This document shows, one piece after another, positions 3,649 to 18,039 of a DNA stretch of 64,000 bases. The stretch comes from Streptacidiphilus rugosus AM-16 (GTDB lineage Bacteria > Actinomycetota > Actinomycetes > Streptomycetales > Streptomycetaceae): contig NZ_JQMJ01000004.1 in assembly GCF_000744655.1 (NCBI RefSeq), positions 1 to 64,000 on the forward strand, given 5' to 3'. The notes beneath the pieces were generated by a model. The model searched no databases. It saw nothing but the letters and a program-made list of their open reading frames with translations, and was not told where the DNA came from. Position numbers and translations under genes: made by a program. How positions within the stretch are numbered: position 1 is the stretch's first letter; the number at the start of each line of letters is the position of its first letter.

Positions 3649-4967
3649 GACGGCCAGTCGGTGATCTCTTTGCAGATTAGGCGGTGAGGGCGGTCGGGTT
3701 GGTGTCGTCGGTGGGTTCTCCCTCGATCGGGTGGAGGCGGCAGCGGCCGAGGATCTCGGACCCGATGTAGCGCCGTTGCTCGGCCCATTCGTCGCTCTGC
3801 TCGGCCAGGACAGCGCCGACCAGCCTGATGACGGAGGCTCGGTCGGGGAAGATCCCGACGACGTCGGTGCGGCGGCGGATCTCCTTGTTCAGCCGTTCCT
3901 GCGGGTTGTTGCTCCAGATGCTCTTCCAGACCGTGCGTGGGAAGGCGGCGAACGCCAGCAGGTCCTCGCGGGCGTTCTCCAGGTGCTCGGCCGCGGCGGG
4001 GAACTTCTCGTGCAGCGAGCCGATCACCTGACCCATCTGCTGATGGACCGCGTCGGCGTCGGGCTGCTCGAACACGGTCCGCAGCAGTGTGGCGACCCAC
4101 GGCTGGGCCGATTTGGGGACCTTAGTCAGGAGGTTGCGGGCGTAGTGGGTGCGGCAGCGCTGCCAGCTCGCGCCGGGCAGGACCCCGGCGACGGCGTCGA
4201 CCAGGCCTGTGTGGGCGTCGGAGACAACCAGCTTCACCCCGGCCAGGCCGCGGGCGACCAGGGACCGCAGGAATGCGGTCCAGCCGGCTCCGTCCTCGAC
4301 GGTGGCGACGTCCAGGCCCAGGACTTCGCGCTGGCCCTCGTTGTTGACGCCGACGGCGACCAGGCATGCGATGTTGACCACGCGGCCGCCCTCGCGGACC
4401 TTCTGGGTCAGCGCGTCGAGCCAGACGAAGGTGTAGGGCCCCTGGTCCAGGGGGCGGTTGCGGAACTCCGCGACCCGCCCGTCCAGGTGCTTGGCCATCT
4501 CGCTGACCTGGGACTTCGACAGCTGGGTGACGCCCAGGGTCTCGGCGAGCTTCTCGACACGGCGGGTGGAGACGCCGAGCAGGTAGGCGGTGGCGACGAC
4601 CGAGATCAGGGCCTGCTCGGCCCGGCGTCGGCGTTCCAGCAGCCAGGTGGGGAAGTAGGAGCCCGACCGCAGTTTGGGGATGGCCAGCTCGACGGTGCCG
4701 GCGCGGGTGTCCCACTCGCGCGGGCGGTAGCCGTTGCGGTGGTTGACGCGTTCGTCGCTGACCTGCCCGTATTCGGCGTTGCAGAGAGCGTCGGCCTCCG
4801 CGGACATGAGCGCGTCGGCGAACGTCTTGACCATCGCGCGCAGCAGATCGGGACTCGCCGAGGCCAAGTTCGCCTCAATCGTGGCGTGCAGGGGCAGACT
4901 GTCAGGTGCGGTCATCGTGCTGGTCTCCTTCGGGCTTAGACACCTCGAAGATCAGCCGATGGCCGTT
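3649..4967 (-). mobile_element. IS256-family insertion sequence, apparently complete
   Basis: One transposase gene is flanked by imperfect terminal inverted repeats. ACGGCCAGTCGGTGATCT lies at 3650-3667. At the other end AGATCAGCCGATGGCCGT lies at 4949-4966, which read inward becomes ACGGCCATCGGCTGATCT, the same but for one missing and one extra base. The length of about 1.32 kb suits IS256. No clear target duplication was found. A 21-base stretch covering the right repeat (4946-4966) recurs exactly at 43898-43918. Confidence 0.75.
3677..4915 (-). CDS. IS256-family transposase
   Basis: A full-length 412-residue DDE (RNase H-fold) transposase that cuts and joins its own element. Residues about 22-62 hold the conserved N-terminal region with NAEYGQ and NHRNGYRPREWDTRAGTVEL. 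Catalytic-type acids are D167 in FVWLDALTQKVR, D233 in VVSDAHTGL and E340 in NPQERLNKEIRRRT. The mutator/IS256 signature around CRTHYARNLL is present. No frameshift is visible, so it may be active. The ATG start is preceded by AAGGAGACC. Confidence 0.95.
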   Translation of the reverse strand: MTAPDSLPLHATIEANLASASPDLLRAMVKTFADALMSAEADALCNAEYGQVSDERVNHRNGYRPREWDTRAGTVELAIPKLRSGSYFPTWLLERRRRAEQALISVVATAYLLGVSTRRVEKLAETLGVTQLSKSQVSEMAKHLDGRVAEFRNRPLDQGPYTFVWLDALTQKVREGGRVVNIACLVAVGVNNEGQREVLGLDVATVEDGAGWTAFLRSLVARGLAGVKLVVSDAHTGLVDAVAGVLPGASWQRCRTHYARNLLTKVPKSAQPWVATLLRTVFEQPDADAVHQQMGQVIGSLHEKFPAAAEHLENAREDLLAFAAFPRTVWKSIWSNNPQERLNKEIRRRTDVVGIFPDRASVIRLVGAVLAEQSDEWAEQRRYIGSEILGRCRLHPIEGEPTDDTNPTALTA

Positions 4968-8762: not shown

Positions 8763-9265
8763 CAGACCATCCCCGCGGGTGCGGGGAGCAGATGCTGAGC
8801 ACGGCGGACATGAACGCTTCGAAGGGACCATCCCCGCGGGTGCGGGGAGCACACCAGGATGCGCAGGTTCTTGCGCTCCCAGTCGGGACCATCCCCGCGC
8901 CCACGGGGATGATCTCCCGGAGACCCGGAGGCCATCTACCAGGCGAACCGGGACGGCTGCACCCTGCGCTCGCAGGGATGGTCCCAACCAGGTGGCCTAT
9001 ATCGCATCATCGAGCGCGTCTGCTCCCGGCAAGTGCGGGGAGGGTCCCATGCCGTTGGCCAGGGCGTCCGTCGGGGTGCCTTGTTCCCGGGCCCGTCACG
9101 ACGTGGGCTGACGACTGCTTCCCGCGACTGCGGGGATGCTCCCTGCGTCGGCTCGTTCACCGGGACGTTCGAGCGCTGCTCCCCGCGCCCGCGGGGATGA
9201 TCCCTTCACGTAGGCCGCGCTGTTCGGGTGGCTGATCTGCTCCCTGCACCTGCGGGGATGATCCC
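8763..9265. CRISPR. Degenerate type I-E-like CRISPR array with repeats in two orientations
   Basis: Repeats of about 28-29 bases recur with a period of 61. Copies 1 and 2 (8765-8790, 8826-8851) read GACCATCCCCGCGGGTGCGG. Copy 3 (8887-8912) begins like these but continues as CACGGGGATGATC, the opposite orientation. Copies at 8958-8983, 9021-9046, 9116-9141, 9177-9202 and 9238-9263 read TGCTCCCCGCGCCCGCGGGG or worn versions of it; a very worn one may lie at 9081-9108. The right-hand orientation matches the sense of the E. coli I-E repeat. Several inner repeats have many changes, so that part is probably decaying. No cas gene lies in the window. Confidence 0.85.
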
Positions 9266-16542: not shown

Positions 16543-16662
16543 CGGGATGTCGCCGGAAGCGATCCCGTCCCATCCTTGATCAAGTAAATGGAGAGCACTG
16601 CTGACCTGCAACGATGGGACTTCTCTAGGGTCCTGTCAGCTGCAAGGAAAGAAACTCTCCAG

Positions 16663-18039
16663 GTGAGCAAACGTAGTGGGCTGTACCCGCGTGTCCGCGT
16701 CCGGGGCGATGGTGAGGGGGCGGTCTCGCAGGCCGGCGGGGTGCTGCTGGTGGAGGCCGCCCGCCGGGTCGGCCTGGACGCCGGCCTTTCGAAGGCGCTC
16801 GCACCGTGGCGCAAGCCGCGCACAGTTCATGATCCCGGCAAGGTCCTGCTCGACCTCGCCCTGGCGGTCGCGTTCGGTGGCGACTGCCTGTCGGACATCG
16901 GCGTGCTGCGGGCCGAGCCTGCCGTGTTCGGCCCGGTGGCATCCGACCCTACGGTGTCCCGGCTGGTTGAGGCCCTGGCCGCAGCGGGTCCCCGCGCGCT
17001 GGAGGCCATCCGCCAGGCTCGGTCCGACGTGCGCCAGCGAGTCTGGAAGCTGGCCGGCAACGCCGCGCCGGACTTCGGCGGCGAGGTGATCGTGGACATC
17101 GACGGCGTGCTGGTCCTGGCCCATTCGGAGAAGCAGGACGCCGCCGCAACGTGGAAGAAGACCTTCGGTCACCACCCCCTGGTCGCGTTCGTCGACCACG
17201 GCCGCGAAGGGTCGGGAGAGCCTGTCGCGGGTCTGCTGCGGCCCGGGAACGCGGGCAGCAACACCGCTGCCGACCACATCACTGTCACCCGCCAGGCACT
17301 GTCCCAGCTCCCGAAGAAGTACCGCCGTGGACGGCGCACGCTGATCCGAACCGACTCCGCCGGTGGCACCCACGAGTTCCTGAACTGGCTCACCCGGCGT
17401 GGGCGGTGGCTGTCCTACTCGGTCGGGATGGGCATCACCGACGCCGTCCACCAGGCCGTTCTCCTGGTTCCCGACTCGGCCTGGACCCCGGCCGTCGAAC
17501 CCGGCGGCGACATACGCCACGGCGCGTGGGTCGCCGAGATCGCAGGCGACGTCCTGAAGGGCTGGCCGAAGGGCATGCGGCTGATCGTCCGCAAGGAACG
17601 GCCCCACCCCGGAGCCCAGTTGCGGTTCACCGACGCCGAGGGGATGCGGCTGACCTGCTTCGCGACGAACACCACCGGCACCGCGACCGCGGCCCTGGAA
17701 CTACGGCACCGCCAGCGCGCGCGGGCCGAGGACCGCATCCGGGCGGCCCGCGACACCGGCCTGCGGAACCTGCCCCTGCACCACGCCGCCCAGAACCAGG
17801 TCTGGCTGGAGGTCGTCCAACTCGCCCTGGACCTGCTGGCCTGGATGCCGATGCTCACCCTGACCGGCGAAGCCCGCCGATGGGAGCCCAAGCGCCTGCG
17901 GTTGCGGCTGTTCTCCGCCGCCGCCCGGCTCGTCACCACCGGCCGCCGACGCTGGCTCCGACTCGGCCGGCACTGGCCCTGGATCCCGGTCATCATCGCC
18001 GCGTTCGAACGACTGCAGGCCCTACCTGACCCCGGCTGA
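16663..18039 (+). CDS. IS1380-family transposase
   Basis: About 458 residues from GTG 16663 (an upstream in-frame ATG at 16588 would add 25 residues). DDE catalytic regions are visible: VIVDIDGVLVLAHSEKQDAA, then TLIRTDSAGGTHEFLNWLTR, and an acidic helix RARAEDRIRAARDTGLRNLP. The C-terminal core LWLEVVQLALDLLAWM-type sequence (QVWLEVVQLALDLLAWMPML) is typical of the family. The gene looks intact. The element ends were not fixed; GTCACGAAACATCGAGGCTAG near 18187 is a candidate right end. A broken methyltransferase gene follows at once, so the insertion probably cut it. Confidence 0.9.
   Translation: MSKRSGLYPRVRVRGDGEGAVSQAGGVLLVEAARRVGLDAGLSKALAPWRKPRTVHDPGKVLLDLALAVAFGGDCLSDIGVLRAEPAVFGPVASDPTVSRLVEALAAAGPRALEAIRQARSDVRQRVWKLAGNAAPDFGGEVIVDIDGVLVLAHSEKQDAAATWKKTFGHHPLVAFVDHGREGSGEPVAGLLRPGNAGSNTAADHITVTRQALSQLPKKYRRGRRTLIRTDSAGGTHEFLNWLTRRGRWLSYSVGMGITDAVHQAVLLVPDSAWTPAVEPGGDIRHGAWVAEIAGDVLKGWPKGMRLIVRKERPHPGAQLRFTDAEGMRLTCFATNTTGTATAALELRHRQRARAEDRIRAARDTGLRNLPLHHAAQNQVWLEVVQLALDLLAWMPMLTLTGEARRWEPKRLRLRLFSAAARLVTTGRRRWLRLGRHWPWIPVIIAAFERLQALPDPG

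What the first reader, a model, noticed from the sequence alone, without database searches (positions are those of the whole stretch)
8763..9265. CRISPR array whose repeats face two ways around a hybrid repeat, with no cas genes
Copies 1-2 are in one orientation and copies 4 onward in the other. Copy 3 (8887-8912) has the start of one and the end of the other. The I-E repeat core is palindromic, so recombination between inverted repeats could flip part of an array and create exactly this hybrid. The inner copies near the junction are the most worn, and some spacings differ from 61 (71, 63, 95).
Basis: seen in the sequence. Interest (0 to 1): 0.52.

Follow-up and report, generated by a model that had tools for sequence, protein, structure and literature searches.

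The report
Fused CRISPR arrays with palindromic scar
Two bacterial immune-memory arrays appear to have been joined head to head through a palindromic repeat, leaving a relic without the defence genes; the same scar recurs in many related soil bacteria and may mark how these defences are lost.

Summary
At 8763-9265 there are two type I-E repeats facing left, a 32-nt hybrid repeat (H, 8885-8916) and five repeats facing right. Searches of the 9.0 Mb genome found no Cas1, Cas7e or Cse1.

The hybrid is not a one-off. A congener has four left-facing repeats, a 32-nt H and four right-facing repeats, all on a 61-nt period. One scan of 84,980 species' genomes gave 31 stretches, 24 with a repeat one unit away; plasmids gave more. 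Over 46 palindromes, that neighbour faces outward 49 times and inward once.

All eight cas-bearing loci seen with arrays on both sides have them head to head around cas. Their palindromic cores read as direct repeats, so recombination there deletes leaders and cas and leaves exactly H. In Planobispora, H's halves match the different repeats of its two arms, arguing for fusion over inversion or copying. In S. anulatus an H locus shares one outer flank with a cas-bearing locus.

Against it: one-armed H outnumber two-armed, a few H have symmetric rare variants, and cas absence is not significantly above the genus base rate.

The parts
8763..8791 (-). I-E repeat, left arm, outermost (first bases worn)
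   Evidence: 22 of 24
8792..8823 (-). 32-nt spacer, left arm
8824..8852 (-). I-E repeat, left arm (24 of 24)
8853..8884 (-). 32-nt spacer, left arm
8885..8916 (.). 32-nt hybrid repeat H: 3' half of a (-) repeat joined to 3' half of a (+) repeat; left half has the left-arm variant (GGT), right half a variant (GAT) found in 2 of 5 right-arm repeats
8917..8956 (+). 40-nt spacer
8957..8985 (+). I-E repeat, right arm
   Evidence: 21 of 24
9020..9048 (+). I-E repeat, right arm
   Evidence: 22 of 24
9081..9096 (+). probable 5' half of a further repeat, cut by a 27-nt deletion
   Evidence: read: exactly 61 nt after 9020, 10 of 16 bases; inference
9115..9143 (+). I-E repeat, right arm
   Evidence: 22 of 24
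9176..9204 (+). I-E repeat, right arm (24 of 24)
9237..9265 (+). I-E repeat, right arm, last
   Evidence: 23 of 24

Best explanation
This is a relic of an actinomycete type I-E CRISPR-Cas locus. Such loci normally have two arrays head to head on either side of the cas operon (8 of 8 loci seen here with both sides). The repeat's palindromic core TCCCCGCNNNNGCGGGGA reads almost the same in both arrays, so between them it acts as a short direct repeat. Recombination or slippage between one repeat of each array deletes both leaders and the cas operon. It joins the 3' half of an inverted repeat to the 3' half of a forward repeat, giving a 32-nt palindromic hybrid with outward-facing arms. With no cas genes the arms then decay and shrink. 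Shown: structure, recurrence, orientation rule, arm-specific halves in L050, layout of cas-bearing loci. Inferred: that the DNA lost in this genome was a cas operon, and the enzymology.
For: Window structure and the same structure in congener G012. 31 stretches in genome contigs hold the palindrome; 24 of the 31 have a repeat one unit away, 7 do not (L039, L042, L049, L051, L053, L054, L063). Over 46 palindromes (32 from those stretches, 3 from the window, G012 and G293, and 11 from plasmids), the neighbour at 61 +/- 5 is outward on the left 25 and inward 1, outward on the right 24 and inward 0. Eight of eight cas-bearing loci with both sides in view have head-to-head arrays (L107, L108, L110, G011; L140, L141; L154; L159). 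PMC4762764 says the same for most actinomycete I-E systems (passages). L050: left arm 9 of 9 G at the variable site, right arm 4 of 4 A, H left half G (GGT) and right half A (GAT). Cas-bearing loci can carry different repeats in the two arrays (L140, L141, L108, L110). H locus L041 shares its left flank (94.7% over 866 nt, up to H) with the outer flank of the cas-bearing locus L107 in the same genome. Partial cas losses beside arrays exist: a lone cas2 remnant in L114 and cas1 cut short without cas2 in L110.
Against: None of 14 congeners gave both flanks of this locus with cas between them, in a search that scores a capped number of candidates. At 61 +/- 5, H with one arm outnumber H with two: 22 vs 13 of 46, 1 with a (+) left neighbour, 10 with none; with a looser arm rule it is 20 vs 18, 4 none, of 42. 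Two loci have symmetric rare variants, better explained by copying one half (L140/L141; L143/L145/L146). L045 and L064 hold H in a same-direction setting beside cas genes. L058's H lies just after a stretch matching the cas3 start. L142 has H within a chain of arrays left of cas3. Cse1 is absent in 21 of 27 H genomes but also in 215 of 343 Streptomyces (Fisher p 0.15). L041's right flank matches many genomes and could not be tied to L107, so only one side was matched.
Confidence: 0.64

Rival explanations
1. Template switching or hairpin fill-in at one repeat: the repeat end folds on its palindrome, one half is copied from the other, and the end is joined to other DNA. No second array is needed.
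For: Explains one-armed H, H in same-direction arrays (L045, L064) and symmetric rare variants in L140 and L143. Outer flanks of 13 one-armed H do not resemble ten putative leaders above shuffles, so H may mark a junction; but the test is weak, as only 1 of 45 leader pairs aligned well.
Against: Does not produce (-) repeats on the left and (+) on the right at exact 61-nt period with unrelated spacers. Does not give the arm-specific asymmetric halves of L050 and of the window.
Confidence: 0.18
2. Inversion of part of a single array by crossing over between palindromic cores.
For: Produces an H and outward-facing arms.
Against: No 5'-5' hybrid in the window; 2 of 343 vs 6 of 343 for H in Streptomyces, neither as a breakpoint in an array. 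Arms carry different repeats in L050.
Confidence: 0.11
3. Misassembly of the palindromic region.
For: Palindromes are error-prone in draft assemblies (recalled).
Against: Recurs in plasmids described as complete sequence and in single-contig G012, with exact 61-nt register in many taxa.
Confidence: 0.02
4. A working bidirectional array in which H serves as first repeat for two divergent crRNA transcripts, with effector proteins from elsewhere.
For: H keeps a 3' half, and hence a crRNA handle, for both directions (inference from the sequence).
Against: No Cas1, Cas7e or Cse1 found in this genome, no room for a leader between the arms, worn repeats; no convincing phage match.
Confidence: 0.03

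Closest known systems
Type I-E CRISPR-Cas of Streptomyces avermitilis (PMC4762764, passages seen)
   Same: 29-bp repeats with the CCCCGCNNNNGCGGGG-type core; two arrays transcribed in opposite directions on either side of cas; the two arrays' repeats differ
   Different: Here no cas genes were found, there is no leader between the arms, and the two arrays are one continuous block joined by H
Spacer-repeat deletion by recombination between direct repeats (PMC8047081, passages seen)
   Same: Recombination between CRISPR repeats removes DNA
   Different: There the repeats lie in one array; here they are in opposite orientation, only the palindromic core pairs, and the product is a hybrid
Orphan (cas-less) CRISPR arrays (recalled; papers listed, not read)
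   Same: Array without cas in the genome
   Different: The hybrid and outward arms give a mark of how this one may have been orphaned
Quasi-palindrome correction mutations (recalled, from no call)
   Same: Turns an imperfect palindrome into a perfect one
   Different: Acts at one site and leaves neighbouring repeats in their old direction

Membership tests
Type I-E CRISPR array | 29-nt repeat with palindromic core and I-E consensus | tested here: met
   7 repeats score 21-24 of 24; next best outside the array in 64 kb is 18
Type I-E CRISPR array | about 32-nt spacers, 61-nt period | tested here: met
   4 of 7 intervals are 61; the rest 69, 63, 95
Type I-E CRISPR array | all repeats in one direction from a leader | tested here: not met
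   2 repeats (-), 5 repeats (+), joined by H; no stretch between the arms for a leader
[quoted passage not shown]
   no Cas1, Cas7e, Cse1; no cas remnant by tblastn with seven references in the first 22 kb of the window. Caveat: of 14 control genomes PF09481 and PF09344 rang in 2 each, not in E. coli
Head-to-head array fusion (this report) | 32-nt or 28-nt 3'-3' palindrome with outward arms in register | tested here: met
   left neighbour at 61 (-), right at 69 (+), so the right side is slightly out of register
Head-to-head array fusion (this report) | outer flanks equal the outer flanks of a cas-bearing locus | tested here: inconclusive
   No such congener for the window; one flank matched for L041/L107
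Inverted array segment | reciprocal 5'-5' hybrid at the other breakpoint | tested here: not met
   best matches in the 64 kb are ordinary repeats of this array

The most novel reading that the evidence does not exclude
The fusion is made by the system's own integrase. Cas1-Cas2 cuts at the two leader-repeat borders leave 29-nt single-stranded repeat ends whose palindromic cores anneal to each other, excising the whole cas operon and leaders at once; the same end folding on itself gives the one-armed H. CRISPR would then carry a built-in route to self-excision, with H as its scar.
Probability: 0.08. Interest if true: 0.75.

Novelty: new variant of a known kind. Interest (0 to 1): 0.5.

Why it matters
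Many bacteria carry CRISPR arrays with no cas genes (recalled), and how they lost them is usually invisible. A 32-nt palindrome between outward-facing arms would be a searchable mark of one such loss route, in a group where two head-to-head arrays around cas are the rule. It would let that route be counted across genomes and tested in a laboratory Streptomyces.

Tried and rejected
Fold-back duplication: rejected for the window and L026, whose spacers are not mirrored. Conversion of the leader-side repeat in place: for 13 one-armed H the outer 120 nt score below the 95% shuffle level against ten putative leaders; weak, since only 1 of 45 leader pairs scored 40 or more and two of the ten (L110p, L112m) do not look like the rest. 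Spacer targets: the 25 of 48 phage records listed had E 0.1-0.5; plasmid hits were dominated by repeats and I did not parse spacers from them. Orthologue hunt for L040: 20 relatives fetched, flanking gene conserved, no array or cas in those stretches, two with a single repeat-like hit. Orthologue hunt for the window: left flank in G002 and G001, right flank in G006 and G008, no arrays or cas in the stretches fetched. L143: its left flank is a gene interior that runs on in L156 and L157; its right flank follows (+) arrays in L154 and L155; in L159 and L160 the arrays abut the other end of that gene, so a fusion is possible there but not shown. Cas absence as proof: dropped after the base rate. 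E. coli analogue of H: no match, but megablast needs a 28-base word. Literature: searches did not turn up this hybrid or scar; I judged from listings and abstract starts, plus passages of two papers.

Rows dropped: of 36 plasmid records with 80% or more of H covered I fetched 15 by rank, not all in unbroken order; L141, L145 and L146 duplicate other loci and L153 is not a hybrid, leaving 11. The 7 stretches without a neighbour stay in the 46. L049, L053, L054, L063 were left out. The strict pattern misses two known H genomes in its own sample (G020, G039), so 6 of 343 is a floor.

Full report
WHAT IS THERE. The window is bases 1-64000 of a 7.1 Mb contig of a 9.0 Mb, four-contig genome. At 8763-9265 lie two type I-E repeats on the minus strand, a 32-nt hybrid H (8885-8916) and five repeats on the plus strand. 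H has the 3' half of a minus repeat on its left and the 3' half of a plus repeat on its right. Joining at the dyad centre of a 29-nt repeat (13 + 16) predicts exactly 16 + 16 = 32 nt. The 95-nt gap contains a half-repeat in register (9081-9096; my reading). Cas1, Cas7e and Cse1 profiles find nothing in the genome. With seven Cas references, tblastn gives nothing better than E 0.15 in the first 22 kb of the window.

IT RECURS. In the genus (14 genomes), G012 has four minus repeats, a 32-nt H and four plus repeats, all spaced 61, and no Cas1 or Cse1 match. The array stretches fetched from G001, G006 and G011 show no hybrid. One scan of genome contigs for the palindrome gave 31 stretches with 32 palindromes. 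In 24 of the 31 a repeat stands one unit away; 7 have none (L039, L042, L049, L051, L053, L054, L063). The 24 come from Streptomyces, Streptosporangium, Sphaerimonospora, Actinomadura, Planobispora and Planomonospora. Some H are 28 nt (L044, L050, L058, L061, and L051 which has no good neighbour), as expected if the loop slips by four bases. In 343 sampled Streptomyces a strict H pattern occurs in 6, the reversed control in none; G020 and G039, H genomes in the same sample, escape the strict pattern. Plasmids gave further cases: 36 records cover 80% or more of H, of which I fetched 15 and kept 11 distinct hybrids.

THE ORIENTATION RULE. For 46 palindromes (32 in the 31 stretches, 3 in the window, G012 and G293, and 11 on plasmids) I asked which way the repeat at 61 +/- 5 faces. 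Left: outward 25, inward 1. Right: outward 24, inward 0. Both sides outward 13, one side only 22, neither 10, and one with (+) on both sides. The window's own right neighbour stands at 69 and so counts as one-sided in that tally. These loci are not all independent by descent. The exceptions are L064 by this count and L045 by context: H in a plus-only setting next to cas genes.

WHY FUSION. Cas-bearing loci of this type have one array on each side of cas, pointing away from it: 8 of 8 with both sides in view (L107, L108, L110, G011; L140, L141; L154; L159). In L110 the cas1-cas2 end is itself damaged. For G011 five Cas proteins were confirmed by Pfam; cas7 and cas2 are named by position there; the plasmid loci carry record annotation. 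L109 and L112 show one side only because contigs end; L111 has no array of this repeat; L113 and L117 are fragments; L142, L144 and L153 were not seen with both sides. The S. avermitilis paper states this layout for most actinomycete I-E systems and that its two arrays have different repeats (PMC4762764, passages). Between two such arrays the palindromic core reads as a direct repeat, so one exchange removes leaders and cas and leaves H. In Planobispora rosea (L050) the left arm has G at the variable site in 9 of 9 repeats, the right arm A in 4 of 4, and H has G on the left and A on the right. In the window the left arm has GGT in 2 of 2, the right arm GAT in 2 of 5, and H has GGT then GAT. 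A one-array inversion or a copied half would not predict this.

A FLANK TEST. The S. anulatus genome G021 holds both an H locus (L041) and a cas-bearing locus (L107). The 866 nt left of H are 94.7% identical to the outer left flank of L107, and the match runs up to H and to the outermost minus repeat. G280 has the same flank without any array in its 13 kb contig; similarity stops at the array border. L041's right side matches many genomes, probably a mobile element (inference), so the second flank could not be tested.

WHAT DOES NOT FIT. One-armed H are common: 22 vs 13, or 20 vs 18 with a looser arm rule. Arm shrinkage by recombination between repeats (a known process: PMC8047081, passages) can produce them, but so can hairpin fill-in of a single broken repeat. 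Symmetric rare variants in L140/L141 (AGGACC / GGTCCT) and in L143, L145, L146 (GGGGCC / GGCCCC) favour copying in those loci. L058 has a stretch matching the cas3 start next to H, and L142 has H at the end of one of many minus clusters left of cas3. Two origins may be mixed. Cse1 is absent in 21 of 27 H genomes against 215 of 343 Streptomyces, Fisher p 0.15. The control E. coli genome did not ring for PF09481 or PF09344, so those profiles may miss some relatives.

RECIPROCAL PRODUCT. The window has no 5'-5' hybrid. It occurs in 2 of 343 Streptomyces. L105 stands alone. L106/L114 is a perfect palindrome at a cas2 remnant, with three plus repeats further on and no other cas gene found in the 20 kb, so itself probably a cas-loss scar of another shape. 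Neither looks like the second breakpoint of an inversion.

LITERATURE. Seven searches turned up no description of this hybrid; only listings, abstract starts and passages of two papers were seen. Many subscription journals and bioRxiv preprints are outside that library.

VERDICT. A relic of two head-to-head type I-E arrays joined through their palindromic repeat core, in a genome where no cas was found: observation confirmed, fusion favoured over inversion. The lost cas operon and the enzyme involved are inferred. On checking, the counts of one-armed cases and of stretches in CRISPR context were corrected against the reading, and the confidence was lowered slightly (0.66 to 0.64).

Noticed in passing
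L114:10483-10994 (G361): Perfect 5'-5' palindrome at a cas2 remnant (tblastn to residues 25-109), three plus repeats further on, no other cas gene found in 20 kb: a different cas-loss scar.
   Followed up: partly
L110:14292-15220 (G037): I-E locus whose cas1 is cut short and cas2 not found, with the plus array directly after it.
   Followed up: no
L154, L142, L159: S. anulatus plasmids carry chains of arrays separated by stretches of other DNA; several clusters are preceded by about 70 nt resembling one another, probably leader copies.
   Followed up: partly
L143:12094-13155: A 1.06 kb stretch bounded by two single plus repeats; in L154 the same stretch lies between array blocks of 11 and 23 repeats, suggesting collapse of arrays to one repeat.
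   Followed up: partly
L024:10318-11990 (G006): 27-repeat single-direction I-E array in a genome without Cas1 or Cse1 matches.
   Followed up: no
L026 spacers 5 and 8: Two spacers of the G012 array, one beside H and the last of the right arm, differ at only 2 of 32 bases (by eye).
   Followed up: no
window 3677-4915, 16588-18039: Mutator-family and DDE transposases near the contig start, in a stretch whose two flanks lie at separate places in congeners.
   Followed up: partly
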